From positions 1 to 64,000 of the forward strand of contig DATJZY010000188.1 in assembly GCA_035577985.1 (NCBI GenBank): a stretch of DNA of 64,000 bases. The letters run 5' to 3'. This DNA is from Candidatus Eisenbacteria bacterium. GTDB taxonomy: Bacteria > Desulfobacterota > Binatia > DP-6. Positions 8,469-42,116 of the stretch are shown here, in pieces. A program made the translations under genes and the position numbers. The notes under the pieces are model-generated. The model worked only from the letters and a program-made list of their open reading frames with translations, was not told where the DNA came from and searched no databases. Every line of letters begins with the position of its first letter. Position 1 is the stretch's first letter.

Positions 8469-8482
8469 CGGATCCGGCCGTC

Positions 8483-25216: not shown

Positions 25217-25322
25217 CCGGGGGTGTCGGCCGTCTTCGTGGCCTCCCGCCCCACCCTTCCTCGCACCGGGTCGAATAGGATCGTTGCGCTCTACGTCGAC
25301 CGCCGGTAGGGAGTGCGGTCCG

Positions 25323-26312
25323 ATGGAAGCGTCCGTCTCAGCCGTCAACGACCAGGTGCGCGAGGCCTCGGCGTTCGCCTATCGACTCCGCGAAGAGATC
25401 GGCAACGTCATCGTCGGGCAGCGCTACCTGATCGACCGGCTGCTGATCGGCCTCCTCGCTAACGGGCACGTCCTCCTGGAGGGCGTCCCGGGGCTCGCCA
25501 AGACGACCGCCGTGAAGACGCTCGCGCAGGCCGTCGACGCGACGTTCCGGCGCATCCAGTTCACGCCGGACCTCCTGCCGGCCGACCTCATCGGCACCCT
25601 CATCTACAACCCGCGCGACGGCGCCTTCACGACCAAGAAGGGTCCCATCTTCGCGCAGATCATCCTCGCCGACGAGATCAACCGGGCCCCCGCCAAGGTG
25701 CAGAGCGCGCTCCTCGAAGCCATGCAGGAGCACCAGGTGACGATCGGCGACGAGACGCTCGCGCTGCCCGAACCGTTCCTCGTCCTCGCCACCCAGAACC
25801 CGATCGAGCAGGAGGGCACGTACCCGCTCCCCGAGGCGCAGGTCGACCGCTTCATGCTGAAGCTGCGCGTGACGTACCCGTCGCGCGAGGAGGAGCGCCA
25901 GATCCTCGAGCGCATGGCCTTCACGAAGAGCGATCCCGTCGTGCGGCCGGTCGTGACGCCGGGCGACGTCCTCGCGGCGCGCGGTCTGGTCGACCAGATC
26001 TACGTCGACGACAAGATCAAGGAGTACATCGTGACGCTGGTGCTCGCGACGCGCGAGCCGGGCGCGCACGGGCTCGATCTGGGCCCGCTCATCCAGTACG
26101 GCGCGTCGCCGCGCGCGACCCTCGCGCTGACGCTCGCGTCGAAGGCCAACGCGTTCCTGTCCGGTCGCGGCTACGTGACGCCGCAGGACGTGAAGACGAT
26201 CGGACCCGACGTGCTCCGCCACCGCATCATCGTCACCTACGAGGCCGAGGCGGAGGAGGTCGACGCCGACGAGATCGTGCGCCGGGTGTTCGACGGGGTC
26301 CCGGTTCCCTGA
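25323..26312 (+). CDS. MoxR-family AAA+ ATPase
   Basis: This 329-residue chaperone-like ATPase has Walker A GVPGLAKTT (residues 54-62), a Walker B/sensor region (ILADEINRAPAKVQSALLEAMQEHQVT), sensor 1 ATQNPIEQEGTYPLPEAQ.DRF and the C-terminal lid domain. MoxR proteins act with von Willebrand A proteins to activate or insert cofactors into periplasmic complexes. It opens the Bat operon; the DUF58 gene follows 17 nt downstream. ATG at 25323 follows GGGAG. Confidence 0.93.
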   Translation: MEASVSAVNDQVREASAFAYRLREEIGNVIVGQRYLIDRLLIGLLANGHVLLEGVPGLAKTTAVKTLAQAVDATFRRIQFTPDLLPADLIGTLIYNPRDGAFTTKKGPIFAQIILADEINRAPAKVQSALLEAMQEHQVTIGDETLALPEPFLVLATQNPIEQEGTYPLPEAQVDRFMLKLRVTYPSREEERQILERMAFTKSDPVVRPVVTPGDVLAARGLVDQIYVDDKIKEYIVTLVLATREPGAHGLDLGPLIQYGASPRATLALTLASKANAFLSGRGYVTPQDVKTIGPDVLRHRIIVTYEAEAEEVDADEIVRRVFDGVPVP

Positions 26313-26329
26313 GCGGCCGCAGCCCGGTC

Positions 26330-27205
26330 ATGCTGTCGCGCGAGCAGCTGCGAGCCGTTCGCAAGATCCAGATCCGGACGAGCCACCTCGTCTCGGACCT
26401 GTTCGCCGGGCAGTACCAGAGCGTGTTCAAGGGTCGCGGCATGGAGTTCGCCGAGGTGCGTCTCTACCAGCCCGGCGACGACGTGCGCACGATCGACTGG
26501 AACGTCACCGCCCGCACGGGCACGCCGCACGTGAAGCGCTTCGCCGAGGAGCGCGAGCTGACGGTCATGCTGGTCGTCGACGCGAGCGCCTCGACGGTGT
26601 TCGGCAGCCGGCGCCAGACCAAGCAGGCGCTCGCGGCCGAGCTGGGCGCGCTCCTCGCCTTCTCGGCGATCACGAACAACGACAAGGTCGGTCTGGTCAT
26701 GTTCAGCGATCGGATCGAGCTGGCGCTGCCGCCGCGCAAGGGAAACCGCCACGTCCTGCGCGTCATCCGCGAGATCCTCTCGCTGCGCCCGACCGGTCGG
26801 GGAACGGACGTGCCGGCGGCGCTCGAGCACCTGGGGCGCGTGACCAAGCGCCGCTGCGTCCTCTTCCTGGTGTCGGACTTCCTCACGCCGGGATGGAAGC
26901 AGGCGCTGCGGCTCGCGTCGCGCCGTCACGACGTCATCGCCGTCGTGCTCGAGGACCCGCGCGAGTCTGAGCTGCCCTCGGTCGGGCTCGTCGAGCTGGA
27001 GGAGGCCGAGACCGGCGAGCGCTACGTCGTCGACACGCGCGACTGGCGCGTCCGCGACGCCTTCGCCCGCCAGGCTGCGCTCGCGCGCGCGCAGCGCGAC
27101 CGCGATCTGCGCGCGGCCGACGTCGACGCGATCGTCGTCGGGACCGATCGTCCGTACATCGAGGCGATCATGCGCTTCTTCCGCATGCGGGAGCGTCGCG
27201 CGTGA
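26330..27205 (+). CDS. DUF58 domain protein
   Basis: This 291-residue protein has the DUF58 signature KGRGMEFAEVRLYQPGDDVRTIDW followed by NVTARTGTPHVKRF. A von Willebrand A-like domain follows, whose metal site begins LVVDASAST. It partners MoxR in the conserved MoxR-DUF58-Bat operon. It is cytoplasmic, lacking membrane helices. Its TGA overlaps the next GTG (GTGA). Confidence 0.92.
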   Translation: MLSREQLRAVRKIQIRTSHLVSDLFAGQYQSVFKGRGMEFAEVRLYQPGDDVRTIDWNVTARTGTPHVKRFAEERELTVMLVVDASASTVFGSRRQTKQALAAELGALLAFSAITNNDKVGLVMFSDRIELALPPRKGNRHVLRVIREILSLRPTGRGTDVPAALEHLGRVTKRRCVLFLVSDFLTPGWKQALRLASRRHDVIAVVLEDPRESELPSVGLVELEEAETGERYVVDTRDWRVRDAFARQAALARAQRDRDLRAADVDAIVVGTDRPYIEAIMRFFRMRERRA

Positions 27206-28131
27206 TCAGGGGTCTTCTTCTCGCGCTGGCGCTCGGGGCGGCCACCTTCGCCGACGATGCACCATCCGTGGTCTCCGTGAAGGCCCATGCGACGCCCGAC
27301 ACGACCACCATCGGCACCCGCGTCCGCTACGAGGTCGAGGTGAGCGCGCCGCCGGGCATGGAGATCATGGTCGCCCAGCCGGCCGAGCGGATCGGCGACA
27401 TGGAGATCGTCGACTTCGGCACGGAGGCCCCGTCGCCCACGAAGGACGGCCGCGTGGTCTTCCGGCGCTGGTGGCAGCTCGTCGCGTGGAGCCCCGGCCA
27501 TCATCTCCTCGTGTCGCCGAAGGTCCAGTATCGCGCGCCCGGCGGCGAGCTCGCCGACGCGCCCACCGACGACGTCGGCGTGACCGTGACGAGCCTGCTC
27601 GAGCGCGCCCCGCAGGCGGCCGACATCCGCGACATAAAGCCTCCCGAGCCGATCCCGGTCGACTGGCGTCCGTACGAGTGGCTCGCCGGCGGCGCGATCG
27701 CCCTCGCGCTCCTCGCGTATGCCGTCTACTTCGCGCTCGCCCGGCGCCGCCGCGTCGTCGCCGCCCCGCCCCCACCGCCCCCGCACGTGGTCGCCGTCGC
27801 CGCGCTCGACGCCCTTCGCGCCCGCGCACTGGTCGAGAAGGGTGCGCTCAAAGAGTTCTACTCGGCGCTTTCCGACATCGTGCGCCGCTACCTCGAGGAC
27901 CGCTTCGGCGTCCGCGCGCCCGAGATGACGACCGAGGAGTTCCTGCTGGCGACCTCGCGCGACGGCCGCCTGGCCGCCGCGCACCGCCGCCTCCTCGGCG
28001 ACTTCCTCGTCGAGTCCGACCTGGTGAAGTTCGCGCGCCACGTCCCCACCATCGCCGACAGCGAGCGCGCCTTCACCGCCGCCCGCCGCTTCATCGACGA
28101 AACGACCCCCGTTACACGGGAGGCCGCGTGA
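27202..28131 (+). CDS. Bat-operon membrane protein with cytoplasmic helical domain
   Basis: This 309-residue protein has a signal peptide (about 1-17), a periplasmic beta-rich domain (about 18-145), one transmembrane helix (about 158-178) and a cytoplasmic helical domain (ALVEKGALKEFYSALSDIVRRYLEDRFGV..PEMTTEEFLLA). This is the layout of DUF4381/BatD-like accessory proteins encoded between the DUF58 and BatA genes. GTG at 27202 and the next GTG at 28128 both form GTGA overlaps. Confidence 0.8.
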   Translation: MIRGLLLALALGAATFADDAPSVVSVKAHATPDTTTIGTRVRYEVEVSAPPGMEIMVAQPAERIGDMEIVDFGTEAPSPTKDGRVVFRRWWQLVAWSPGHHLLVSPKVQYRAPGGELADAPTDDVGVTVTSLLERAPQAADIRDIKPPEPIPVDWRPYEWLAGGAIALALLAYAVYFALARRRRVVAAPPPPPPHVVAVAALDALRARALVEKGALKEFYSALSDIVRRYLEDRFGVRAPEMTTEEFLLATSRDGRLAAAHRRLLGDFLVESDLVKFARHVPTIADSERAFTAARRFIDETTPVTREAA

Positions 28132-29129
28132 GCGGCCGGCTTGCCAACCCCTGGTGGCTGCTTCTGCTCGCGCTCCTGCCCCTCCTGTGGACGGCGGGGC
28201 GGCGGCGAGATCGTCGCGCGGCGGTGCGCTATCCGTCGCTCGCGGTGCTGCGGGCGGTCGCGCCGGCGGGTTCCGGGCGGCGCCGGCTCGTGCTCGGGCT
28301 CCTGCGCTCAGCGGTCGTCGTCCTGATCGCGCTCGCGATGGCGCGCCCGCAGGTGGGCAACGCCGCCGCCAAGGTCCACCACGAGGGCGTCGACGTCGTG
28401 CTCGCGGTCGACGTCTCCGGCAGCATGCTCGCCGAGGACTTCACGCTCGGGAACGAGCGCGCGAGCCGGCTCGGGGTCGTGAAGTCGGTCGTCAAGGACT
28501 TCGTCGCGGCGCGGCCGCAGGATCGGATCGGGCTCGTCCTGTTCGGGGCGCGGGCGTATACGCAGTGTCCGCTGACGCTCGATCACGGGTGGCTCCGCCA
28601 GAACCTCGAGCGCGCCGAGGTCGGCATGATCGAGGACGGGACGGCGATCGGGGCCGGGCTCGCGACCGCCGTCAATCGGCTGCGCGCGTCGACGGCCAGG
28701 AGCAAGTTCGTCGTGCTGCTCACCGACGGCCAGCAGAACGCCGGCCGCATCACGCCCGAGACGGCGGCCGAAGCCGCCGCGGCGCTCGGCATCAAGGTCT
28801 ACACGGTCGGCGCCGGCACGCGCGGCATGGCCCCCTTTCCCGCGCGCGACCTCTTCGGCAACAAGGTGTACCGGCCGATGCAGGTCGACATCGACGAGGA
28901 GACGTTGAAGCGGGTCGCCTCTGCGACCCACGGCCGCTACTTCCGCGCCACCGATACCGACAGCCTGCGCGACATCTACACGGAGATCGACAAGGCCGAG
29001 AAGACGACGTTCGAAGCGCCCGAGTACGCGGACTACCGGGAGCTCTATCCCTGGCTCGTCTGGCCGGCCTTGCTCGTCATGTGTCTCGAGGTGGGTCTCG
29101 CCGAGACGCTCCTGCGGAAGATCCCATGA
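28128..29129 (+). CDS. batA: BatA: membrane von Willebrand factor A protein
   Basis: This 333-residue protein has two N-terminal transmembrane helices (about 7-22 and 55-71), a vWA domain with the MIDAS motif DVSGSM (residues 95-100), Thr in DGTAIG and Asp in LTDGQQNAG, and a final helix (WLVWPALLVMCLEVGLAETLL). The MIDAS metal supports protein-protein contact in the periplasm. It follows a GTGA overlap with GGGAGG upstream and overlaps batB by ATGA. Confidence 0.92.
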   Translation: MSGRLANPWWLLLLALLPLLWTAGRRRDRRAAVRYPSLAVLRAVAPAGSGRRRLVLGLLRSAVVVLIALAMARPQVGNAAAKVHHEGVDVVLAVDVSGSMLAEDFTLGNERASRLGVVKSVVKDFVAARPQDRIGLVLFGARAYTQCPLTLDHGWLRQNLERAEVGMIEDGTAIGAGLATAVNRLRASTARSKFVVLLTDGQQNAGRITPETAAEAAAALGIKVYTVGAGTRGMAPFPARDLFGNKVYRPMQVDIDEETLKRVASATHGRYFRATDTDSLRDIYTEIDKAEKTTFEAPEYADYRELYPWLVWPALLVMCLEVGLAETLLRKIP

Positions 29130-30163
29130 TCCAGTGGCGCGACCCCGTGGCGCTCGCCGCCCTCCTCGCCGTGCCCGCGCTCGCGCTCTTCTTCCTGTGG
29201 GCGCTCCGCCAGCGCGAGCGCGCGCTCATGGCGTTCGTCGAGGCGGCGCTGCTCCCGGTCGTCGTCCCCGATCTCGACCGGCGGCGCCGCCGGGTCCGCA
29301 TGGTGCTCCTGGTCGCCGCCGCCGCCGCGCTCGCCGTCGCGCTCGCGGGCCCGATGTGGGGCTTCCACTGGGAGGAGATGCGGCGGGAAGGCATCGACCT
29401 CGTGGTCGCGCTCGACACCTCGAAGAGCATGCTCGCGACCGACGTCGCGCCCAACCGCCTCGCGCGCGCGAAGCTCGCGGTGCAGGACCTCCTCGCGCAG
29501 CTCAAGGGCGATCGCATCGGTCTCGTCGCGTTCGCCGGCACCGCCTTCGTGCAGTGCCCGCTGACGCTCGACCGGAGCGCCTTCATGGAGAGCCTCGATG
29601 CGATCGAGGTCGGGATCATCCCGCGCGGCGGAACCAATCTCACGACGGCGATCGACACGGCGCTCGAGGCGTTCGAGGGCCGCCAGGGAAGCCATCAGGC
29701 CCTCGTCCTCATCACCGACGGCGAGGACCACGAGGGCAAGGTCGAGGAGGCCACCAAACGTGCCGCCGAGCGCGGCGTCAAGATCTACACGGTCGGCATC
29801 GGCACCAGCGAAGGCGAGCTCATCCCTGTCGAGAAGGGCTACCTGAAGGACCGCAAGGGCCAGGTCGTGAAGTCGCATCTGGACGAGGAGACCCTCAAGA
29901 AGGTCGCGATCGACACGGGTGGCGTCTATCTGCACGCCGCCGGCGCCGACCTCGGCCTCGCGGACCTCTATCGCGATCACATCGCGACGATGGAGAAGCG
30001 CGAGCTCGCGAGCACGCTCGAGCGGCGCTACGAGCATCGCTTCCAGCTGCCGCTCGCGCTCGCGCTGCTCCTGCTGGTGGCCGAGCCGTTCGTCGGCGAG
30101 CGGCGGCGCGCGGCGTGGCGCGAGCGTTCGTGGTGGCGACGTCGCAGCGAGGTGGCGTCGTGA
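29126..30163 (+). CDS. batB: BatB: membrane von Willebrand factor A protein
   Basis: This 345-residue paralogue of BatA has two N-terminal helices (about 6-27 and 58-75), MIDAS DTSKSM (residues 97-102), GGTNLTTAI and LITDGEDHEG, then a C-terminal helix (LPLALALLLLVAEPF). BatA and BatB are expected to form a complex in the inner membrane. Its start overlaps batA (ATGA) and its end overlaps the TPR gene (GTGA). Confidence 0.92.
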   Translation: MIQWRDPVALAALLAVPALALFFLWALRQRERALMAFVEAALLPVVVPDLDRRRRRVRMVLLVAAAAALAVALAGPMWGFHWEEMRREGIDLVVALDTSKSMLATDVAPNRLARAKLAVQDLLAQLKGDRIGLVAFAGTAFVQCPLTLDRSAFMESLDAIEVGIIPRGGTNLTTAIDTALEAFEGRQGSHQALVLITDGEDHEGKVEEATKRAAERGVKIYTVGIGTSEGELIPVEKGYLKDRKGQVVKSHLDEETLKKVAIDTGGVYLHAAGADLGLADLYRDHIATMEKRELASTLERRYEHRFQLPLALALLLLVAEPFVGERRRAAWRERSWWRRRSEVAS

Positions 30164-31149
30164 GAGCCGCCCTCCTGCTCGTCCTCGCGCTCGGCACGAC
30201 CGGCGCCGGGTGGCTCGATCCGCACGCGACGGCGCGCCAGGCGTCCAAGCTCTATGCCGACGGGAAGTTCGACGACGCGGTCGCCAAGTACAACGAGGCG
30301 CTGGTCGACGACCCGGACTCGGCGCTGCTTCATTTGAACTTGGGCGCCGCCGCCTATCGGCAGGGCAAGTTCGACGACGCGATCAACGCGCTCGGCCAGG
30401 TGCCGTCGTCGGACACCGAGCCGGCGCGGACGGCGCGCGCCGCCTACGACACGGGCAATGCGAAGTACCGGCTCGGCGCCGCGGCGGAGACGTCGGACCC
30501 GAAGACGGCGCTCGAGCGCTGGGCCGAGGCGCTGGTCGCGTACCGGCGCGCCATGGGGGCCGATCCCGCCGACGAGGACGCGAAGTTCAACCACGAGTTC
30601 GTCGAAAAGAAGATCGCCGACCTCAAGAAGAAGCTCGAGGAGCAGCAGAAGAACAAGGACCAGCAGCAGCAACAGGATCAGAAGGACCAGAAGCAGCAGC
30701 AGGGTGAGGATCAGCAACAGCAGCAGCAACAGGCTCAGGATCAGCAGCAACAGCAGCAACGACAACACGACCAGCAGCAAGAGGAGCAGGCCGACAAAGG
30801 GCAGGACCAACAGCAGCAGCAGGATCAGCAGGACCAACGGCAGCCGGGCGAGCAGAAGGAGAAGGAACAGAAGCAGAAGGAGCAGGAGCAGGCGCAGGGC
30901 GGCGACGACCAGGAGAAGCCGGGCGACCAGAAGCCGCAGCAGGCCCAAGGCGAACCCGGCGAGCCGCAGGGCGACCAGCGCCAGGCGCAGGGCGGTGGCG
31001 CCACGGCCGGGGGCGAGCCGACGAAGGAGATGTCGCCGCACGAGGCCGAGGCGCTGCTCGACGCGCAGCGCGACCAGGAGGTCCGCCCCGACGAGATCGT
31101 GCAGCAGCTCCAGGGGGCCGGCGTCGCCGAGCCACGGGAGGATTGGTGA
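30160..31149 (+). CDS. BatC-like TPR protein with long Gln-rich tail
   Basis: This 329-residue protein has a short signal segment and about three TPR-like units (residues about 22-145: ASKLYADGKFDDAVAKYNEAL, AAYRQGKFDDAI, ALVAYRRAMGADPADEDAKFNHEF). A roughly 160-residue Gln/Lys/Glu/Asp run follows, coded largely by CAG/CAA repeats (about 30640-30990), with a short folded C-terminus (SPHEAEALLDAQRDQEVRPDEI). This matches BatC, whose linker is often Gln-rich. The repetitive DNA could vary in length between strains. Confidence 0.85.
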   Translation: MRAALLLVLALGTTGAGWLDPHATARQASKLYADGKFDDAVAKYNEALVDDPDSALLHLNLGAAAYRQGKFDDAINALGQVPSSDTEPARTARAAYDTGNAKYRLGAAAETSDPKTALERWAEALVAYRRAMGADPADEDAKFNHEFVEKKIADLKKKLEEQQKNKDQQQQQDQKDQKQQQGEDQQQQQQQAQDQQQQQQRQHDQQQEEQADKGQDQQQQQDQQDQRQPGEQKEKEQKQKEQEQAQGGDDQEKPGDQKPQQAQGEPGEPQGDQRQAQGGGATAGGEPTKEMSPHEAEALLDAQRDQEVRPDEIVQQLQGAGVAEPREDW

Positions 31150-33647
31150 GAGCCGTTCTCGTCGTCGTGACGCTGCTCACGCTGCGCGGGCTGGCGCCCG
31201 CCGAGATCCGCGTGACCGCCACCATCGACCCGGCGAAGCTCGCGGTCGGAGAGTCGGCCGACCTCGCCGTCGTGATCGACGGCACGCAGAGCGCGCCCGC
31301 CCCGCAGATCGCGAGCACCGAGGGCCTGCAGATCCGGGCGGTCGGCCCGTCCTCGAACGTCACGATCGTGAACGGCCGCGTGACGGCGTCGGTCACACAT
31401 CACTTCACGGTGGTGGCCTCGAAGCCGGGCCGCTATACGATCGGTCCGATCGGCGTCGACGTCGACGGCAAGCACTACGATGCCCCGGCGGTGACGCTCG
31501 AGGCGCTCGCCGCCGGCGCGCGATCGGCCGACGGCAGCCCGAGCCGCAACGACCAGCTCGAGCTGTCGTTGTCGCTGCCGCGCACCGAGGTCTACCTCCA
31601 CGAGCGCATCCCGCTCGGCTTGAAGCTCCTGGTGGGCGCCGTGCGCATCGGCGATCTCCAGTACCCGGCGGTTCCCGGCGACGGCTTCGCGCTCGAGAAG
31701 TTTCCCGAGCCGACGCAGCGCCGGGAGGACACGCCGAACGGGCCGCGGCAGGTCGTCGACTTCAAGACGACGCTGACGCCGCTCAAGACCGGATCGCTGA
31801 CCGTCGGGCCGGCGACCATGAACATGAGCGTCGTCGTCCAGGGACGGCGGCGCGGGCCGTTCTTCGGCGGCTTTTTCGGCGACGAGAGCCGCCCGACGCA
31901 GCTCCAGTCGCAGCCGATCACGCTCATGGTCCTGCCCCTTCCGAGCGAGGGAAGGCCGCCCGATTTCGGCGGCGCGGTCGGCCACTTCACGTTCGAGGTG
32001 ACGGCGGCGCCGGCCGAGGTCACGGCAGGCGATCCGGTGACCGTCCACAGCGTCGTGCGCGGCGACGGCGCGCTCGACGGAATCGCCCCGCCGACGATCG
32101 CCGCCGGCGACGGCTTCCGCGTCTATCCCGTGCAGACGAGCCAGCCCTCCGACCGCAACGACGAGCGGACGTTCGAGCAGGTCGTGATCCCGCTGCGCGA
32201 GGGTCCCTTCCGCCTGCCGACGCTCCGCTTCAGCTACTTCGATCCGACGAGCCGCACGTACCGGACGATCGCGCCGAGCCCGATCACCCTCACGATCCGC
32301 CCGTCGGCGCAGGCGAAGGCGACGCCCCAGATCGTCGGCGCCGTGCCGGCGCCGGCGCCCGCTCCGCAGCGCACCGAAACGCTCGGGCGCGACATCGTCT
32401 TCATCAAGGATGCGCCGGGGACGTTGCGGCCGGTCGGAGCGCGTCTGTATCGAAGCCCCGTCTTCTGGCTGCTGCAGCTCGTGCCCGTGCTCGTGTGGGC
32501 CGTCGCCACCGCCTACGACCGTCGTCGCCGGCGGCTCGCGACCGACTCGCAGTACGCGCGCTACACGCGCGCAGGACGCGAGGCGCGCGCGGCGCTCGCC
32601 CGCGCGCGCCTCGTCCTCGGGCGCGGTGACACCGCCCGCTGCCACGATCAGGTCGCCGCGGCCGTGCGCGACTACCTCGCCGCCAAGCTGGCGCTCCCAC
32701 CGGGGAGCGTGCTCGAAGCCGCGCCCGACCGTCTGCGCGCGAACGGCGCCGGCGACGCGGTGGCAACGCAGGTGACGGCCTTCTTCACCGCCTGCGAAGC
32801 CGCGCGCTTCGCGCCACGCGCGACCTCGGCCAGCGAGCTCGAGACGACGCTCGCGCAGGCGGACGCGATCGTGCGCGCGCTCGAGCGCTCGCGCCGCCTC
32901 GGCCGGGCCGCCGCCCTCGCGCTCGTCGCCCTCGCCGCTGGATCGGTCGCCGCGGCCCCCGAGAGCCCGAGCGCCCTCTTCTATCGGGCGAGCGCGCTCT
33001 ACGGCGAGGAGAAGTACGCCGAGGCCGCGGCGACCTATGAGAAGGTCCTCGCGGCGGGTGTGGAGAGCGCGCCCGTGTACTTCGATCTCGGCAACGCCTG
33101 GTTCAAGACCGGCGACGTCGGACGCGCGGTCCTCGCCTACGAGCGCGCGCTCCGCCTCGCGCCCGGCGACCCCGATCTGGCGGCGAACGTCGCTTACGCA
33201 CGCGAGCTCGCGAGCGACGTCGCCGACGAGCCCATCGCCGCCCGATTGCTCGTCCCGCTCGCGTCGCGCGCGAGCACGGACACGCTGCTCCTCGCAGCCG
33301 CCGCGGCGTGGTCGGTCCTGTGGCTCCTGCTCGCGGTCGGACCGCTGCTCCCCGGCTTCGCGCGCGCGCCGCGATTCCTCGTGGCCGCGGCGACGATCGT
33401 GCTGGGCGTGAGCGCGACGTCGGCGGGCTATCGGTGGTGGACCATCGACCACCCGACGTATGCCGTGGTGGTCGCAGTCGCCGACGCCACCGTGCGCTAC
33501 GAGCCGAACGCGAACGCCAAGCCGCACTTCGCCGCCAAGCCCGGCACGGTGCTGCGCGTCGACGGCGAGCAGAAGGGATGGTCGCAGGTCGTCGGCCGCG
33601 ACCGCCGCCGCGGCTGGATCGAGTCGGCCGCGCTGGGAGTCATTTAG
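31146..33647 (+). CDS. BatD-BatE fusion protein
   Basis: This 833-residue protein joins two normally separate Bat proteins. Residues 1-20 are a signal peptide. About 20-430 are the BatD-type repeated beta-sandwich domains (AEIRVTATIDPAKLAVGESADL; PAEVTAGDPVTVHSVVRGDG). A transmembrane helix (about 440-458) and a cytoplasmic helical segment follow. From about residue 605 a second hydrophobic, signal-like helix begins. Then come BatE-type TPR units (ALYGEEKYAEAAATYEKVLAAG...YFDLGNAWFKTGDVGRAVLAYERAL), two helices (about 715-770) and an SH3-like end (VLRVDGEQKGWSQVVGRDRRRGWI). GTG at 31146 overlaps the preceding stop (GTGA). It closes the operon. Confidence 0.87.
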   Translation: MRAVLVVVTLLTLRGLAPAEIRVTATIDPAKLAVGESADLAVVIDGTQSAPAPQIASTEGLQIRAVGPSSNVTIVNGRVTASVTHHFTVVASKPGRYTIGPIGVDVDGKHYDAPAVTLEALAAGARSADGSPSRNDQLELSLSLPRTEVYLHERIPLGLKLLVGAVRIGDLQYPAVPGDGFALEKFPEPTQRREDTPNGPRQVVDFKTTLTPLKTGSLTVGPATMNMSVVVQGRRRGPFFGGFFGDESRPTQLQSQPITLMVLPLPSEGRPPDFGGAVGHFTFEVTAAPAEVTAGDPVTVHSVVRGDGALDGIAPPTIAAGDGFRVYPVQTSQPSDRNDERTFEQVVIPLREGPFRLPTLRFSYFDPTSRTYRTIAPSPITLTIRPSAQAKATPQIVGAVPAPAPAPQRTETLGRDIVFIKDAPGTLRPVGARLYRSPVFWLLQLVPVLVWAVATAYDRRRRRLATDSQYARYTRAGREARAALARARLVLGRGDTARCHDQVAAAVRDYLAAKLALPPGSVLEAAPDRLRANGAGDAVATQVTAFFTACEAARFAPRATSASELETTLAQADAIVRALERSRRLGRAAALALVALAAGSVAAAPESPSALFYRASALYGEEKYAEAAATYEKVLAAGVESAPVYFDLGNAWFKTGDVGRAVLAYERALRLAPGDPDLAANVAYARELASDVADEPIAARLLVPLASRASTDTLLLAAAAAWSVLWLLLAVGPLLPGFARAPRFLVAAATIVLGVSATSAGYRWWTIDHPTYAVVVAVADATVRYEPNANAKPHFAAKPGTVLRVDGEQKGWSQVVGRDRRRGWIESAALGVI

Positions 33648-33915: not shown

Positions 33916-35079
33916 CTATAGGGAGCGGAGGAACGCGAGCAGCCGCGATCGCTGGAAGCTCGAGAGCCGGGCGTACTGGTCGCGAGCGCGGCGCCCCTGA
34001 CCGTCGTGCGCGAGGATCGCGTCAGGGATCGTGGTCGCGGTACCGTCGTGCAGGTACGTCGTGAGGAGGCGCAGACCCCAGAGTGGCGCGGTGCGCATCT
34101 CGCGTCCGCTCGCCAGGCCTTGCTCGATGCCGTCGCCCAGGCTGCCCATGTCGTGGAGCAGGAAGTCCGAGAACGGCTGGAAGGTGCGGCGGCTCAAGGC
34201 CGCGATGTCGCTCGTCCCGGTCGTGAGCGTCCGGACGTGACAGCTCGCGCAGCCGATGCGATCGAAGAGCACGCTGCCGGCGAGCACCTGGCGCGTGATG
34301 GGCCCGCGCGGTGGCGCGCCGAGCATCGTCATGAAGTCGTGGAAGAGCTGCACGTCCTCACCGTCATCCTCGGGGTCTGGAACGGGATCGCAGGCCAGCA
34401 GCGTGCAGTCGCCCTGCGGACAGTTCTCGGTCGGGAAGAGCGGGCTCGTGATCCCCATCTCGTTCAGATACGCGTCGCCCGAGAAGTGCATCAGGTTCGG
34501 CACCTGGCTCTTCCAGCCGAACTTGCCGACCCTCGTCTCGCCCGTGACCGCGTCGGTCACCATGTTCGCCCGACCGGCGGTCGAGGGCGATCGCCGGGCC
34601 TGCGAGCGCGCCATGGCGCGGAACGTCGAGTCGGGCACCGCGTCGACGAGGCCCAGGCCGAAGAGCGGCGTCGTGCGCCGGCCGGCGCTCACCGTGGCCG
34701 TGCCCGGCACGACCTCGCCCACGAAGTTGCACGCCCCCTGTTCGCCGATGCCCTGGTTCTGGATGAGCGACCCGCCGAGGTTGGCGAGCGGGTCGAAGAC
34801 GCCGCCCACCACCGCGCCGAAGCGCGTCTCGACGAGCGTGCTGCCACCGCCGGTCGCGCCGACGTTGTGGCAGGTCGCGCACCCGTCACCGTTGAAGACG
34901 GGACCGAGCCCGTCGCCCACGTCCTCGATCTCCTCGAAGACTTCGCGACCGGCCTCGAAAGTCTGGACCTGCTCGGGTGTGAGGCCGCGCACCGGATCGC
35001 CGATCTCACCCGACGCCGTCGTTGCCGTCACCACCACCAACCCCAAAGCCCCCAGCAGACAAGAACGTCGTGTGCGCAT
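33916..35079 (-). CDS. Di-haem oxidoreductase (peroxidase-like, DHOR family)
   Basis: This 387-residue periplasmic protein has a signal peptide (about 1-24) and two haem c sites, CATCH (in FNGDGCATCHNVGATGGGS) and CASCH (in FDRIGCASCHVRTL). The DHOR-type motif RTTPLFGLGLVDAVPD and its second-half echo RTAPLWGLRLLTTYLHDG are also present. The family is related to di-haem cytochrome c peroxidases, with few members characterised. ATG at 35079 has an excellent GGAGGTGA site 6 nt upstream. No electron-transfer partner is adjacent. Confidence 0.88.
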   Translation of the reverse strand: MRTRRSCLLGALGLVVVTATTASGEIGDPVRGLTPEQVQTFEAGREVFEEIEDVGDGLGPVFNGDGCATCHNVGATGGGSTLVETRFGAVVGGVFDPLANLGGSLIQNQGIGEQGACNFVGEVVPGTATVSAGRRTTPLFGLGLVDAVPDSTFRAMARSQARRSPSTAGRANMVTDAVTGETRVGKFGWKSQVPNLMHFSGDAYLNEMGITSPLFPTENCPQGDCTLLACDPVPDPEDDGEDVQLFHDFMTMLGAPPRGPITRQVLAGSVLFDRIGCASCHVRTLTTGTSDIAALSRRTFQPFSDFLLHDMGSLGDGIEQGLASGREMRTAPLWGLRLLTTYLHDGTATTIPDAILAHDGQGRRARDQYARLSSFQRSRLLAFLRSL

Positions 35080-35403
35080 GGCTCTCACCTCCCCCGCGGC
35101 GAAACAGTGCAACGCACGTGCCCCGGCCTGCGGCGCTGTGCGCCGGAGCACGGCTCCGCAACGCCGCGCGAGCACCGGCGGGCGTTCGACGCGCCGCCTT
35201 GGCGCCCGCCGTGCGCGCCGCGCCTGAGCATCGCCGACCGGGTGCAGCGGCGCCCGCAGAAGGGCGCCGCACGTCGCGCACGGGAATGCACGCGCGTTCG
35301 GTCCGCACGGCGACGAACCGACGCGGCGGGCGAAGCGCGCGCGGTGCGGATGCTGCGGACCCCGCGTTGCCGGCCGCGCCCGCGGCGGAGTACAGGCGCC
35401 CGT
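35080..35403. other. Divergent intergenic region, no clear signal
   Basis: These 324 bases are very G+C-rich and separate the di-haem protein from the beta-helix protein. Apart from the ribosome-binding site of the leftward gene and a weak GGAGC-ACG-GCTCC hairpin near 35147-35159, I see no promoter, operator or small gene I can support. Confidence 0.4.
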
Positions 35404-36801: not shown

Positions 36802-37101
36802 TTCCCGTAGTTGCGCGGCGACGATGCGGGCCGCATCGCGGAGCGTGGGCGCGATGGGAGAGTACCATCGACGATCGTACCCCTCGCAGTGTGCCGTACA
36901 GTGGGGGGGCGACGCGACGACGCGCGCCACTATCTGGTTCGGCGAGCAGACTATCCCGAAACCTTCAGTTCGCGGGTGGTCTCGTGCGGTTTTTTCTTGA
37001 CAGCGTGGTGCCTTCTGCGGAACTGTCCTAGTCGTCACCAGATCGACCGGGAGAGCAGCGCTTCTTCTTCATCCGAGTTCTCATACCGAGGGGAGGACAA
37101 G
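36802..37101. other. Intergenic region upstream of tandem-repeat protein
   Basis: This 300-base gap is noticeably less G+C-rich toward its right end. A consensus TTGACA at 36997-37002 is preceded by a six-T run, but no good -10 box lies 16-18 nt downstream (GAACTG at 37020). A strong GGGGAGG ribosome-binding site is at 37090-37096. No small gene is supported. Confidence 0.4.
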
Positions 37102-39294
37102 ATGGACCGACCGAGGAAGTTCGGACTCGCCGGAATTGCCCTGGTTGCGATCGCACTCGGCGCCTTGGTCGGGCCGCCCGCAGTCGAGGCCCAATGTCAG
37201 CACGGCGCCAGCATCTTCAAGACCTGCCAGAGCCCCAAGCGGAAGTGCAACGCGGACTCGCAGTGCAACGATCAGATCGAGTGCACCGACGACGTCTGCG
37301 ACCTCTCGCAGAGCAACATCACCAACTGCACCATCAGCCTCGCGAACGCGGACACCTGCGGCGACACCACGAAGATCACCGGGGGCTTCGACATCGAGGA
37401 CCTCGGCGGGGACAACGTGCGAGTTCCGGCGGTCGGCAACCTCCCCGTTTCAGGGGTTTTCGGAAACGCCGTCTGCTGTGCGGGCCCGTCGCTCCCGTGC
37501 TTCGTCGGTCCCGCCGGCTCGCTGTTCGTCGTCCCCAACTCCGCGACCGGTTGCGGGAACCTCCCGCTGCCCGGCGCGGCAACCGCCGGGCAGGTGAACT
37601 TCCTGCAGAACACCTACGTCGTGCAGCCGAACGATCCCGACCCGCTCCCCGATCAGGGGAACGTGACCGGCAACGACCTGTGCAACGCGGGGCTCATGGG
37701 GTGCTCCACAGGACCCATCACCGTGCAGTTCGGCGCGGGTACCGACCTCGTGAGCGGCTGCGTGAATCAGAACAAGCCCGACAGCACGCCGTGCGGTGAC
37801 ACCGATCAGAACGCGTGCACGACGGCGGGGTGCGAGCAGGGATCGTGCGTGCAGACCCACCAGCAGACGATCTGCACGCCCGACACCAACGAGTGCACGA
37901 GCGATCCCGCGTGCAACCCCGCGACCGGCCTGTGCACGCATCCGCCCGTTCCGGACAGCACGCCGTGCGGCGACACCGACACGAACCTGTGCACCACGGC
38001 CGGCTGCGAGCAGGGCCAGTGCGTGCAGACCCACCAGCAGACCGTCTGCACGCCGGACACGAACGAGTGCACGAGCGATCCGGCGTGCAACCCCGCGACC
38101 GGCCTGTGCACGCACCCGCCCGTTCCCGACAGCACGCCCTGCGGCGACACCGATCAGAACGCGTGCACCACGGCCGGCTGCGAGCAGGGCCAGTGCGTGC
38201 AGATCCACCAGCAGACCGTCTGCACGCCCGACACCAACGAGTGCACCCTCGATCCGCCGTGCAACCCGGCGACCGGCCTGTGCACGCACCCGCCCTCGCC
38301 CGACAGCACGCCGTGCACGGACACCGACGCCAACGCGTGCACGGTGGCGGGCTGCGAGATGGGACAGTGCGTGCAATCCCACATCACCGACATCTGCAAT
38401 GTGCCCGATCACTTCAGCTGCTACGAGGTGAAGCCGTTCCTCTTCCACCGCATCCCCGGCGTCACGCTGGTCGACCAGTTCGGCTCGTCGACCGTCAACG
38501 TCGACCGGCCGAACAAGCTCTGTGCGCCGGCCGACAAGAACGACGAGCAGCCCGAAGCGCCGAACGATCCAGACCATCTGACCGCGTTCCGCATCCGCAA
38601 TCCAGCCATCAAACGGCTGAACCAGGTGGTCGTGAACCAGTTCGGCACGATCACGCTCGACGTCATCAAGACCGACCTGCTCTTCGTTCCGACGGCCAAG
38701 ACCCTCGCGGCACCTGCCCCCGCCCCGCCGCTCGATCCGGCCGTCGATCACTTCCAGTGCTACAAGGTGCGGCGATCGAAGGGCACGCCGTCATTCCAGA
38801 AGATCCTCGGCGTGAAGGTCGACGACCAGTTCGGGACCGGCACCGTCGATCTGCTGAAGCCGGCGCAGCTCTGCGCACCGGTCAACAAGAACAACGAGGA
38901 TCCGACCGCTCCGCAGCACCCGGACCACCTGCTCTGCTACAAGGTGAAGGCGCGCGCGCCGTTCACCACCAAGCACGTCTGGCTCGGCAACCAATTCGGC
39001 CCCTTCAACGACCTGGTCCTCACCCGGCGCCAGGAGTTCTGCGTGCCGTCGCTCAAGAACCCGAGCTCGACGACCACGACCTCCACGCCGCCGACCACGA
39101 CGACCTCGACCACCGTCGTGCAGACCACGACGACCAGCACGAGCACCAGCACGTCCACCAGCACGTCCACCACGACGTCGACGGCAGCGAGCACGTCGAC
39201 CACGACCACCAGCTCGTCGACCACGACCTCGACGACCCAGTTCGGGTCGCCGAGCGCAGCCTTCCTCGACCGCGATCCGTTCGCGACCGATTGA
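37102..39294 (+). CDS. Secreted Cys-rich tandem-repeat protein with Ser/Thr tail
   Basis: The 730-residue product has a signal peptide (about 1-31, ending AVEA) and a Cys-rich N-terminal domain (about 32-220). Residues about 227-430 are three complete and one partial copies of a 58-residue unit (DSTPCGDTDQNACTTAGC...CTPDTNECTSDPACNPATGLC). Three copies of a DQFGxxTVDVxxP...LCAPxDKN domain follow (about 434-655). A Ser/Thr-rich low-complexity run (TTTTSTSTSTS, about 660-715) precedes a short end. It has no membrane anchor. Surface or matrix function is inferred from composition. ATG at 37102 follows GGGGAGG. Confidence 0.85.
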   Translation: MDRPRKFGLAGIALVAIALGALVGPPAVEAQCQHGASIFKTCQSPKRKCNADSQCNDQIECTDDVCDLSQSNITNCTISLANADTCGDTTKITGGFDIEDLGGDNVRVPAVGNLPVSGVFGNAVCCAGPSLPCFVGPAGSLFVVPNSATGCGNLPLPGAATAGQVNFLQNTYVVQPNDPDPLPDQGNVTGNDLCNAGLMGCSTGPITVQFGAGTDLVSGCVNQNKPDSTPCGDTDQNACTTAGCEQGSCVQTHQQTICTPDTNECTSDPACNPATGLCTHPPVPDSTPCGDTDTNLCTTAGCEQGQCVQTHQQTVCTPDTNECTSDPACNPATGLCTHPPVPDSTPCGDTDQNACTTAGCEQGQCVQIHQQTVCTPDTNECTLDPPCNPATGLCTHPPSPDSTPCTDTDANACTVAGCEMGQCVQSHITDICNVPDHFSCYEVKPFLFHRIPGVTLVDQFGSSTVNVDRPNKLCAPADKNDEQPEAPNDPDHLTAFRIRNPAIKRLNQVVVNQFGTITLDVIKTDLLFVPTAKTLAAPAPAPPLDPAVDHFQCYKVRRSKGTPSFQKILGVKVDDQFGTGTVDLLKPAQLCAPVNKNNEDPTAPQHPDHLLCYKVKARAPFTTKHVWLGNQFGPFNDLVLTRRQEFCVPSLKNPSSTTTTSTPPTTTTSTTVVQTTTTSTSTSTSTSTSTTTSTAASTSTTTTSSSTTTSTTQFGSPSAAFLDRDPFATD
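37780..38391 (+). repeat. 174-bp in-frame tandem repeat
   Basis: Units begin with GACAGCACGCC at 37780, 37954, 38128 and 38302, an exact 174-bp (58-codon) period. Units 1-3 are nearly identical at the DNA level; the fourth is partial and more diverged. Such conservation suggests recent duplication or gene conversion and predicts copy-number variation. Confidence 0.9.
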
Positions 39295-39301
39295 TCCCGG
39301 C

Positions 39302-39337
39302 GCCGGCGCGTCGTGCGAAACCGCACGACGTGCCGGC
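39302..39337. terminator. 16-bp hairpin between convergent genes
   Basis: GCCGGCGCGTCGTGCG at 39302-39317 pairs with CGCACGACGTGCCGGC at 39322-39337 around an AAAC loop; the one imperfect pair is G-T, which pairs as G-U in RNA. It lies between the stops of two convergent genes, touching the leftward stop. No T-run follows on either side. Confidence 0.65.
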
Positions 39338-41265
39338 TATCTCGTCGTCGCGTTCTCCGGCCGCACTTCGATCGTCGCGCGGACCTGCATCGGCGTGCCG
39401 TCGCGCGCGAGGTCGAGCTGAACCTCCTTGCCGATCCCGAGCACGTAGAGCCACGTCTGGAAGTCGGCGACCGAGAGCAGCTTGTGGCCGCCGAGCGCGA
39501 CCAGGAAGTCCCCTGGCCGGACGCCCACGCGCGACGCCGGGCTCGGATCGAACACGTCGTCGATGTAGACGCCCGTCATGGGGATCGTCGCCTTCGTCTT
39601 CGCGGGCTGCCCTTCGAGGCGCTTGCGCAGGAGCGGTAGTTCCAGGACCGACACCCCGATCCACGGCGAGCGACGGCTCTGCGCCACCTTCAACGCCTCG
39701 TAGAGGTTCCAGACGAGGTTCACGGGCAGGACGTGCGCGGTCGGCGAGCCGTCCGGCGCGCCGCCGACGACCATGCCCACGACCTGGCCGTGGATGTCGA
39801 CGACGGGCCCGCCCTGCCCACCCGGCGGCACGGCGAGCGAGCTCTGCAGGCGCGTCGCGGAGATCTGCGCCTGATAGCACTGTCGCTCGGGCGGTGCCGA
39901 CACGACGCCGACCGAGAACGTCTTCTCCGCTCCCGGCGGGTCGCCGAGGGCGATCAGCCAGTGCCCCACCTGCACGCGATCGCTGTCAGCGATCTCGAGC
40001 GGCGCAGCGTCGATCGCCTTCGGCAGGTCGCCGATGCGGAGCACCGCGAGATCGAGCGTGGGCTCGGTTCCGACGATGCGCGTCGGATAGTGGGGCTGGT
40101 CGGGCAGCTCGACGTCGACGAGCTCCACGGTTTCGCCGGGCTGGTCGCGCACGATGTGATCGCAGGACAGCACGTATCCCTCGTCGTCGACGAGAAACCC
40201 GCTGCCCGACCGCACCGGCCGGAAGCCCGGATACCGGAGCATGTCGGGGTTGCTCACCATCCAGGCGTCGCCGCGTTCGGCCTGCAGCTTCTCGGGCGAC
40301 CAGGCGGGATCGCGCACGTAGCTCGTCACGCCGACGACGCGCGGAAAGATCCGGTCGGCCACGCTCGAGAAGACGTCCTGCAGCTGCACGGCGACGGCGA
40401 GCCCCGAGCTCGGGCCGCCGGCCGGTCCGGCGGCCGCACCTCCGCCTTCCGCGGACGCGAAGTTCACGCGGTAGTAGTCGACCTCGCGCGGCGACGCGTC
40501 GGGACGCGTCTCCCGCAAGAGGTCGAGCAGCTCCAGGTTCGACGACGCGGCGATCTCGTCGAGCGTCGGCGGCGACCCGCCGGCCGGCCGCCTCGGGTCG
40601 AACTCCACGCGCAACGTCATCACGAAGAACGCCACGTCCCAGCGCTGCTGCTCGCTGTAGGCCTGGAACGACGGCATCGCCGTACCGTCGACGCCGAACG
40701 AGACGGCGCTGTAGACCTGCCGCGGCGCCAGACGATCCAGGTACTCGCCGCGAAACGCGGTGGGCGGCGGCTCCATGTCGGGCGAGGCGGGTCCGTCGCC
40801 GGCGCCCGCCGGCCCATGGCACGGGGCGCAGTCGGCGGCCCACAGACGGCGCCCGTTGGCGAGGTTCGGCGGCGCGCTCGGACGCGCGGCGCCGCCCAGC
40901 GTGCGCGCGAACTCCGGCAGCAGGCGTCGTGTCGCGGACCACACCTCGGCCGCGGGCGCCCGCCGCTCGATCGACTGCTCCAGCTCGCGCAGACCCGCGA
41001 GCACCCCCTCGGAGCGACCCGGGCTGGCACCGTACTCGCGGATCAGCTGCTTGGTGAACCGCAGCACCTCGCCGTACTCGAGCTGGTTCAGGACGGCGCC
41101 GTCGTGCACCGCGCCGTCGTAGTCGGTGCCGACGTATTCCAAGAGGAAGACGAGGCGTTGGGCGTCGAGCGGGCGCGCGGGCGACTCGGCGACGGCGCGG
41201 ACGGACGCGCCCAGCAGGACAGCCAGCACGACGGCGCCGAGGGAGGTCGCTGCGGGCCGGCGCAT
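39337..41265 (-). CDS. Cytochrome c / HtrA-like fusion with inactive protease site
   Basis: This 642-residue exported protein (signal about 1-27) has a cytochrome c domain with CAPCH at 146-150 and a likely Met ligand in GTAMPSF (Met197). Upstream of the haem is a helical region like those paired with FTR1-type iron permeases. A trypsin-like HtrA domain (about 290-520) keeps His370 (SCDHIVRD) and Asp405 (TLDLAVLRI). The serine motif GNSGGP reads GGQGGPVVD, with Gln484 replacing the nucleophile (codon CAG at 39814-39816). A C-terminal PDZ domain follows (GVYIDDVFDPSPASRVGVRPGDFLVALGG). It is predicted to sense or bind rather than cleave. It overlaps dapF by one base (TGATG). Confidence 0.87.
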   Translation of the reverse strand: MRRPAATSLGAVVLAVLLGASVRAVAESPARPLDAQRLVFLLEYVGTDYDGAVHDGAVLNQLEYGEVLRFTKQLIREYGASPGRSEGVLAGLRELEQSIERRAPAAEVWSATRRLLPEFARTLGGAARPSAPPNLANGRRLWAADCAPCHGPAGAGDGPASPDMEPPPTAFRGEYLDRLAPRQVYSAVSFGVDGTAMPSFQAYSEQQRWDVAFFVMTLRVEFDPRRPAGGSPPTLDEIAASSNLELLDLLRETRPDASPREVDYYRVNFASAEGGGAAAGPAGGPSSGLAVAVQLQDVFSSVADRIFPRVVGVTSYVRDPAWSPEKLQAERGDAWMVSNPDMLRYPGFRPVRSGSGFLVDDEGYVLSCDHIVRDQPGETVELVDVELPDQPHYPTRIVGTEPTLDLAVLRIGDLPKAIDAAPLEIADSDRVQVGHWLIALGDPPGAEKTFSVGVVSAPPERQCYQAQISATRLQSSLAVPPGGQGGPVVDIHGQVVGMVVGGAPDGSPTAHVLPVNLVWNLYEALKVAQSRRSPWIGVSVLELPLLRKRLEGQPAKTKATIPMTGVYIDDVFDPSPASRVGVRPGDFLVALGGHKLLSVADFQTWLYVLGIGKEVQLDLARDGTPMQVRATIEVRPENATTR

Positions 41266-42116
41266 CAGGTCGGCGGTAGCGCGATCCGGCCGGTGAACAC
41301 CTCGACGACCGGTCCTTCCAGCCGCAGCGACCAGTCGGCGCGCACGTGCACGACCAGCTCGCCGCCCGGCATCTCCACGCGGATGCGTCCCGCCTCGCAG
41401 CGGCCCGTGCGCACCGCCGCCGCGGCCGCGCCGCACGACGACGATCCCGACGCGAGCGTGTAGCCGGCGCCGCGCTCCCAGATGCGGATCTCGATCGCGT
41501 CCGGTCCGAGCGTGTGCGCGAGCTGCACGTTGGTGCGCTTGGGGAATGCCGCGTGGCGCTCGAGCACGGGGCCGAGGGCGCGGCACGCGGCCTCGTCGAC
41601 GGCGTCGCGGAAGACCACGCAGTGCGGGTTGCCGATCGACACCGCCGTCACGACGACGCGCTCGCCGCCCGGGACGTCGAGCGGCACCTCGACCGCGTCG
41701 CCGGCGACGCCCAGCATCGGGATCTCGGCTGGGACGAACGTGGCCCGTCCCATCTCGACGGTGACGGCGCCCACCCGCCCGGCGACCAGGTGGCACTCGC
41801 ACGCGACCACGCCGCCCGTGGTCTCGACCGTGAAGCGCGGCGCCCTCGCGTGCCCGTGGTCGAACAGGTACTTCGCGAAGATCCGCAGCCCGTTGCCGGA
41901 CTTCTCGGCCTCGCTCCCGTCGGGGTTGAAGATGCGGACGCCGACGTCGGCGGTCCGGCTCGGGACCCGAACCAGGATGCCGTCGGCGCCGACGCCGCGG
42001 TGCCGATCGCACCACAGACGGACGGTCTCGGGCGCGAGCGCGTGGCCACCCAGGTCGGCCGCATCGACCACGAGGTAGTCGTTTCCGAGGCCGTGGCCCT
42101 TCACGAACGGGATCAC
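41265..42116 (-). CDS. dapF: Diaminopimelate epimerase homologue with both Cys replaced by Ser
   Basis: This 283-residue protein has the two-lobed DapF fold with NDYLVVDA, NPDGSEAEKSGNGLRIFAKY, SIGNPHCVVF and ERGAGYTLASGSSSCGAA. Classical DapF uses two cysteines (CGNG and ACGTG) as acid/base pair for L,L- to meso-DAP conversion. Here both are Ser (Ser73 and Ser223, codons at 41898-41900 and 41448-41450). It may be inactive, slow, or an isomerase/racemase of another substrate. GTG at 42116 gives the conserved N-terminus. It is coupled to the cytochrome/HtrA gene and divergent from doxX. Whether a canonical dapF exists elsewhere cannot be seen. Confidence 0.85.
   Translation of the reverse strand: MIPFVKGHGLGNDYLVVDAADLGGHALAPETVRLWCDRHRGVGADGILVRVPSRTADVGVRIFNPDGSEAEKSGNGLRIFAKYLFDHGHARAPRFTVETTGGVVACECHLVAGRVGAVTVEMGRATFVPAEIPMLGVAGDAVEVPLDVPGGERVVVTAVSIGNPHCVVFRDAVDEAACRALGPVLERHAAFPKRTNVQLAHTLGPDAIEIRIWERGAGYTLASGSSSCGAAAAAVRTGRCEAGRIRVEMPGGELVVHVRADWSLRLEGPVVEVFTGRIALPPT

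What the first reader, a model, noticed from the sequence alone, without database searches (positions are those of the whole stretch)
39337..41265. Cytochrome c fused to a pseudo-HtrA protease
The trypsin-like domain keeps His370 and Asp405 but has Gln484 where the nucleophilic Ser belongs, and it is fused to a CAPCH haem domain and a PDZ domain. A redox-linked peptide-binding sensor or scaffold is a new type of arrangement to me.
Basis: partly seen in the sequence, partly recalled or inferred. Interest (0 to 1): 0.8.

Follow-up and report, generated by a model that had tools for sequence, protein, structure and literature searches.

The report
Haem-linked dead HtrA scaffold protein
An exported bacterial protein joins an electron-carrying haem domain to a protease that has lost its cutting residue but kept its peptide-binding domain; it belongs to a previously unremarked family of dead proteases, found in four bacterial phyla, that in three of them is fused or encoded next to haem-c or iron-uptake proteins.

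Summary
In detail: one intact 642-aa ORF carries CAPCH (146-150), a trypsin-like domain with His370, Asp405 and Gln484 at the serine position, and a PDZ domain. It is not a local mutation. Five other Candidatus Binatia genomes carry the fusion (one as a contig-end fragment); the serine position is Q, L, L, F, F where readable. The Gln itself is not conserved; loss of Ser is. The C-terminal half belongs to a separate clade of pseudo-HtrAs (support 100/100) in Binatia, Verrucomicrobiota, Acidobacteriota and Planctomycetota: 0/23 have the serine, 23/23 carry an invariant 'CYQ' that 0/40 sampled active HtrAs have. Haem recurs by different routes: fused here to the N-terminal cytochrome module of FTR1-type iron permeases; overlapping a small cytochrome c'-like gene in Verrucomicrobiota (18 of 19 informative loci); beside di-haem oxidoreductase and imelysin genes in Planctomycetota (3/3). 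Most likely a non-catalytic docking scaffold for c-type haem redox proteins, perhaps in periplasmic iron handling. Haem plus HtrA plus PDZ (MamE) and dead HtrA (MamO) were already known in magnetosomes, so it is a new variant, not a new kind. Function is inferred only.

The parts
39337..41265 (-). Whole gene, 642 aa: signal peptide, FTR1-type helical + cytochrome c module, pseudo-HtrA, PDZ
   Evidence: Intact ORF; full-length relatives
41188..41265 (-). Putative Sec signal peptide (aa 1-26, ...ASVRAVA/ES)
   Evidence: Read by eye from the sequence; low pLDDT 1-27; no signal-peptide predictor was run
40900..41169 (-). N-terminal helical module (aa 33-122) shared with cytochrome c/FTR1 iron permeases
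   Evidence: Matches to proteins carrying PF03239 FTR1; helices in model
40612..40866 (-). Mono-haem class I cytochrome c domain (aa 134-218)
   Evidence: Pfam PF13442/PF00034 above cut-off; invariant C146, C149, H150 and M197
40816..40830 (-). Haem c attachment motif CAPCH (aa 146-150)
40675..40677 (-). Met197 (GTAM), probable distal haem ligand
   Evidence: Invariant in the five full-length proteins; ligand role inferred
40405..40455 (-). Disordered Gly/Ala linker (aa 271-287) between haem half and HtrA half
   Evidence: pLDDT < 50
39682..40401 (-). Pseudo-HtrA (trypsin-like) domain, aa 289-528
   Evidence: Pfam Trypsin_2 93 bits; HtrA fold
40156..40158 (-). His370, position of catalytic His
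   Evidence: Kept here and in G006 but not across the family
40051..40053 (-). Asp405, position of catalytic Asp
   Evidence: Asn, Gly or Gln in many relatives
39814..39816 (-). Gln484 (codon CAG) at the position of the nucleophilic Ser
   Evidence: GGQGGP against GNSGGP in canonical HtrA; no Ser in any of 23 family members
39871..39879 (-). Cys463-Tyr464-Gln465, invariant family signature in the loop before the former nucleophile
   Evidence: 23/23 pseudo-HtrAs, 0/40 canonical HtrAs
39370..39669 (-). PDZ domain, aa 533-632, with conserved SPWxG and SVADFQxWLY..GIG
   Evidence: Pfam PDZ_2; invariant columns

Best explanation
The gene encodes an exported c-type cytochrome whose C-terminal half is a repurposed, non-catalytic HtrA with one PDZ domain. 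The HtrA part no longer cuts; it acts as an assembly and docking platform (peptide tails bind the PDZ domain; HtrA-style oligomers may form) that brings the fused haem c to a client protein. The haem half comes from the periplasmic module of FTR1-type iron permeases, where it sits next to the iron channel, so the most likely job is electron transfer to or from periplasmic iron (or an iron-handling client), with the membrane permease replaced by a docking module. Shown: domains, loss of the catalytic Ser throughout the clade, kept PDZ and fold, homology of the haem half to FTR1-permease N-termini, recurrent haem-c or iron-uptake partners in three phyla. Inferred: export, haem loading, absence of proteolysis, oligomerisation, peptide binding, the iron role.
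For: Ser absent in 23/23 members and present in every canonical HtrA used for comparison; no member keeps the full triad. The clade is separate from canonical HtrAs with 100/100 support, so one old loss followed by long retention is the simplest reading; profile scores show a gap (members 221-540 bits, active HtrAs at most 166). Strong constraint persists on the haem ligands, the CYQ motif and the PDZ domain. Haem association by three routes: fusion in all Binatia copies found; cytochrome c'-like gene overlapping the start in 18 of 19 informative Verrucomicrobiota loci, with a four-helix model and CNACH in the last helix; DHOR (PF06537) and imelysin (PF09375) genes directly convergent in 3/3 Planctomycetota loci. 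FTR1 homology of the N-terminal half. DHOR (DUF1111) and imelysins belong to EfeUOB-type iron uptake operons (PMC3143127).
Against: No biochemical evidence. The Acidobacteriota copy has no haem neighbour. No gene neighbour is shared among Binatia; in the window the partner by overlap is dapF, which is not kept. The Planctomycetota genes are convergent, not an operon. The window protein keeps His and Asp. The iron link rests on homology and neighbours only.
Confidence: 0.5

Rival explanations
1. A haem-protein chaperone or maturation factor: the dead HtrA/PDZ part holds unfolded or apo c-type cytochromes or iron-redox proteins (as Ser-to-Ala DegP keeps chaperone activity, from general knowledge), and the fused or neighbouring cytochrome is its client rather than its tool.
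For: The haem partner changes from phylum to phylum (class I cytochrome, c'-like bundle, di-haem oxidoreductase) while the pseudo-HtrA stays the same, which fits a client relation as well as a scaffold relation.
Against: A permanent fusion is odd for a chaperone and client; the family is rare (6 of 148 Binatia, 4 of 337 sampled Verrucomicrobiota genomes), unlike maturation factors.
Confidence: 0.2
2. A redox or haem-ligand sensor: the haem state (or the invariant Cys463) is read out through the HtrA loops and PDZ domain to a signalling partner, as DegS reads peptide tails.
For: The invariant CYQ lies in the loop that, from memory, corresponds to the HtrA sensor loop L3, between the strand at 450-457 and the former nucleophile; cytochromes c' are often gas binders (general knowledge). 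A DsbA-like gene lies upstream in one Binatia genome.
Against: The Met197 ligand suggests a six-coordinate electron-transfer haem in Binatia, not a gas sensor; no regulator is conserved nearby.
Confidence: 0.15
3. A metal-binding scaffold of the MamO type: the dead protease domain itself binds transition metal and the haem sets its redox state.
For: MamO binds transition metal through its degenerate protease domain (PMC4794232); iron-uptake homologies here.
Against: No conserved surface His/Asp pair appears among the family's invariant columns of the protease domain; the only invariant strongly metal-capable side chain there is Cys463.
Confidence: 0.1
4. An unusual but active protease using another nucleophile.
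For: One Verrucomicrobium has Cys at the Ser position (L101), and the window protein keeps His370 and Asp405.
Against: Gln, Leu, Phe, Tyr, Ile, Val, Ala and Gly fill the site elsewhere and His/Asp are lost in most members.
Confidence: 0.03

Closest known systems
MamE (magnetosome HtrA protease with magnetochrome domains)
   Same: HtrA trypsin-like domain, covalently bound c-type haem and PDZ in one protein; tied to iron redox chemistry (PMC3971196)
   Different: MamE order is trypsin - tandem magnetochrome - PDZ, needs its protease activity, and its haem domain is the magnetotactic-specific magnetochrome; here a class I cytochrome c of FTR1-permease type lies N-terminal and the triad is dead; MamE model 85 bits against a cut-off of 800
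MamO (HtrA pseudoprotease of magnetosomes)
   Same: HtrA-derived, degenerate catalytic triad, kept for a non-catalytic role in iron biology (PMC4794232)
   Different: No haem domain reported, has a TauE domain, different family; MamO model 41 bits against 800
Cytochrome c/FTR1 family iron permeases
   Same: N-terminal helical module and cytochrome c domain, 35-44% identity over about aa 34-230, including CXXCH and the GTAM methionine
   Different: Those continue into the FTR1 permease (PF03239); here the permease is absent and pseudo-HtrA + PDZ follows
DegP/DegQ/DegS (canonical HtrA)
   Same: Trypsin-like + PDZ fold, Z 25-27 to DegQ/DegS structures
   Different: No catalytic Ser, single PDZ, CYQ signature, separate clade
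EfeUOB / imelysin-DHOR iron uptake loci
   Same: Planctomycetota pseudo-HtrAs sit beside DHOR and imelysin genes
   Different: The passages I read on the known operons mention no pseudo-HtrA (PMC3143127)

Membership tests
HtrA/DegP serine proteases (active) | Trypsin-like domain followed by PDZ | tested here: met
   Pfam Trypsin_2 and PDZ_2; HtrA fold Z 25-27
HtrA/DegP serine proteases (active) | His-Asp-Ser catalytic triad | tested here: not met
   Gln484 here; no Ser in 23/23 relatives
HtrA/DegP serine proteases (active) | Proteolytic activity | not testable with these tools
   Needs purified protein
MamE | NCBIfam MamE model above cut-off (800 bits) | tested here: not met
   84.8 bits, below the generic DegP model (150.8)
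MamE | Magnetochrome CXXCH domain(s) between trypsin and PDZ | tested here: not met
   One CXXCH, N-terminal to the trypsin domain, in a class I cytochrome c
MamO | NCBIfam MamO model; TauE domain | tested here: not met
   41 bits against 800; no TauE match
Cytochrome c/FTR1 iron permease | FTR1 permease domain PF03239 | tested here: not met
   No PF03239 match in P0001, present in relative L015
Cytochrome c/FTR1 iron permease | N-terminal helical + cytochrome c module | tested here: met
   37.7% identity over 268 aa to L015
Class I c-type cytochromes | CXXCH plus distal ligand in a ~85-aa domain | tested here: met
   PF13442 and PF00034 above cut-off, M197 invariant; haem loading not testable here
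CYQ pseudo-HtrA clade (named here) | No Ser, CYQ motif, conserved PDZ motif, profile A2 score above 220 bits | tested here: met
   379.5 bits (window sequence is itself in the profile); CYQ 23/23; clade support 100/100

The most novel reading that the evidence does not exclude
A phylum-spanning family of pseudo-HtrA proteins has become a general periplasmic docking module for c-type haem redox partners in iron handling, with the partner supplied by fusion (Binatia), by a translationally coupled cytochrome c'-like gene (Verrucomicrobiota) or by a neighbouring di-haem oxidoreductase/imelysin pair (Planctomycetota); its invariant Cys-Tyr-Gln may be the coupling point between haem and PDZ.
Probability: 0.33. 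Interest if true: 0.75.

Novelty: new variant of a known kind. Interest (0 to 1): 0.6.

Why it matters
Outside magnetosomes, no link between dead HtrA scaffolds and c-type haem turned up in the paper library. A conserved, non-catalytic HtrA clade in four phyla, paired three different ways with haem-c or iron-uptake proteins, suggests that HtrA folds were recruited to organise periplasmic redox and iron chemistry more widely than the magnetosome proteins MamE and MamO, and would give a non-magnetotactic system in which to test why protease folds and haem keep being joined. It also corrects annotations that would call these proteins serine proteases.

Tried and rejected
Sequencing error or local mutation at Ser484: rejected, since relatives carry other non-Ser residues. 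Conserved role for Gln: rejected. MamE/MamO membership: rejected on NCBIfam cut-offs and architecture. Operon function through dapF: the genes overlap (TGATG), but dapF does not lie near the gene in the other loci. Conserved neighbour in Binatia: none found; DsbA-like gene only in G025, SDR gene only in G030. Myxococcota and the wider own phylum: beyond the window's own hit only weaker matches of the canonical-HtrA score range, which carry GNSGGP where examined. Unfused copies in Binatia: none at E <= 1e-50 in 145 genomes. Plasmids: only trypsin-like proteins at about 32% identity in the rows shown. Foldseek for the cytochrome c'-like model gave no significant match; cytochromes c' are among weak hits (E 0.2 and worse), so the c' label is tentative (Pfam 17.8 bits against 26.5). 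Literature: no paper on a pseudo-HtrA with a cytochrome beyond the magnetosome ones. A first tree had two misframed rows and was replaced (then 75). The apparent exclusivity of cytochrome c/FTR1 and cytochrome-HtrA genes (no Binatia genome had two matches) is not significant at these numbers.

Full report
Observation. The minus-strand ORF 39337-41265 is intact and encodes 642 aa. Pfam places a class I cytochrome c at 134-218, Trypsin_2 at 354-498 and PDZ_2 at 552-630, all above curated cut-offs. AlphaFold2 on a 30-row alignment gives pLDDT 84.8 with a helical module (33-122), a cytochrome region (135-218), further helices (235-267), a disordered linker (271-287), then HtrA (287-528) and PDZ (about 535-632). 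Foldseek and VIA-align match the C-terminal half to DegP, DegQ and DegS (E 2.9e-26; Z 25-27). pTM is only 0.57, so the relative placement of the two halves is not to be trusted.

Residues ~33-268 are not a free-standing cytochrome: they match the N-terminal part of cytochrome c/FTR1 iron permeases (37.7% over 268 aa to L015, which carries PF03239 FTR1 at 369-516). In the window protein the FTR1 permease is replaced by pseudo-HtrA and PDZ. A 438-aa protein in G008 shows the same haem half ending without a permease, so the haem half is a mobile module.

Is it a local accident? No. Full-length relatives occur in G006 (65%), G080 (56%), G030 (43%) and G025 (39%), and a contig-end fragment in G050. 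The serine position is Q, L, L, F, F. The His position is His in the window and G006, Arg in G080, lost or shifted in G025 and G030; the Asp position is Asp in four and Asn in one. C146, C149, H150 and M197 of the haem domain are invariant. Six of 148 Binatia genomes carry it, and no unfused copy was found in 145 Binatia genomes.

The wider clade. A scan of one genome per species found the pseudo-HtrA + PDZ half, without the haem half, in Verrucomicrobiota; a profile of both (A2) then found further members in Verrucomicrobiota (4 of 337 sampled genomes), Acidobacteriota (1 of 247) and Planctomycetota (3 of 246), none in 195 genomes around a Myxococcota centre and none but the window's in 198 of its own phylum. 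Phylum names of the centres come from the record titles. Members score 221-540 bits; the best other hits (at most 166 bits) are ordinary HtrAs with GNSGGP wherever examined. In a tree of 23 members and 40 canonical HtrAs the members form one side of a branch with 100/100 support. None of the 23 has the Ser; fillers are Q, L, F, Y, I, V, T, A, G and one C. 'CYQ' (Cys463-Tyr464-Gln465 here) is in 23/23 members and 0/40 canonical HtrAs. The kept PDZ motifs (SPWxG, SVADFQxWLY, IExRP) argue for continued binding function.

Haem partners. Binatia: fused. Verrucomicrobiota: a small, probably exported protein with CNACH/CNQCH/CNECH overlaps the start of the pseudo-HtrA gene (for example L072:7453-7893, then 7890-8870). 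It is intact in 18 of 19 loci with sequence upstream; in L069 only its 3' end survives, and L068 is cut by the contig end. Some of these loci are near-identical, so 18 is a count of loci, not of independent events. The protein models as a four-helix bundle; Pfam's cytochrome c' model matches below threshold (17.8 bits) and Foldseek gives only weak hits, cytochromes c' among them. Planctomycetota: in all three loci the pseudo-HtrA is convergent, within about 15 bp, with a two-CXXCH di-haem oxidoreductase (PF06537, 283 and 311 bits in the two scanned) followed by an imelysin (PF09375, 199 bits in L142). Acidobacteriota: no haem neighbour. DHOR (DUF1111) and imelysins are components of EfeUOB-type iron-uptake loci (PMC3143127). 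The window itself has a DHOR gene 4.2 kb away (33919-35100), which may be coincidence.

Mechanism. Shown here: a domain fusion, an ancient loss of the nucleophile, a kept fold and PDZ domain, recurrent haem-c partners, homology of the haem half to FTR1-permease N-termini. Inferred: the protein is exported and haem-loaded, does not cut, and uses HtrA/PDZ surfaces to bring a haem c next to a client, most likely in periplasmic iron redox chemistry. That a scaffold is more likely than a chaperone, sensor or metal binder is a judgement; the data do not separate these well.

Against what is known. MamE joins trypsin, magnetochrome haem domains and PDZ (PMC3971196), and MamO is a crystallographically studied HtrA pseudoprotease with a role in iron biomineralisation; dead MamE copies arose several times (PMC4794232). 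So the general idea is known. The present family fails the MamE and MamO models (85 and 41 bits against 800), has a different haem domain and order, and no link to magnetosomes was seen. I found no paper describing it, with the caveat that only open-licence papers are held. Verdict: a new variant of a known kind.

Noticed in passing
L070:9179-15250, L076:8992-15072, L100:8950-14982, L082:826-6996, L144:1721-7153: A roughly 2,000-aa protein (Ig-like, PhoX-phosphatase, exo/endonuclease/phosphatase and endonuclease I domains in the L070 copy) lies near the pseudo-HtrA in several Verrucomicrobiota loci; possibly an extracellular nucleic-acid-scavenging protein.
   Followed up: partly
L069:5060-5510: A Verrucomicrobiota copy in which the cytochrome c'-like gene has been reduced to its 3' end beside what looks by eye like a tRNA gene, while the pseudo-HtrA is kept.
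   Followed up: partly
L025:1363-2676 (G008): A 438-aa Binatia protein with the FTR1-type helical + cytochrome c module and an apparent C-terminal membrane anchor but no permease or HtrA: the haem module also occurs detached.
   Followed up: no
L063:1366 onward (G096): An FTR1-like permease (by eye) with two successive cytochrome c domains before the permease.
   Followed up: no
36940-39291 (+): 784-aa protein with near-identical Cys-rich repeats (DSTPCGDTDQNACTTAGCEQGQCVQTHQQT) and DUF7450 repeats, ending in a Thr/Ser-rich tail.
   Followed up: no
41263-41267 (-): The dapF stop and the start of the haem-HtrA gene overlap (TGATG), suggesting translational coupling with an unrelated housekeeping gene; not conserved in relatives.
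   Followed up: yes
25284-33647 (+): MoxR/DUF58/BatD-like aerotolerance-type cluster (by eye), followed by an orphan DHOR gene at 33919-35100 (-).
   Followed up: no
L101:7232-8332: One Verrucomicrobiota pseudo-HtrA has Cys at the former Ser position (PESCGSP), without the His.
   Followed up: no
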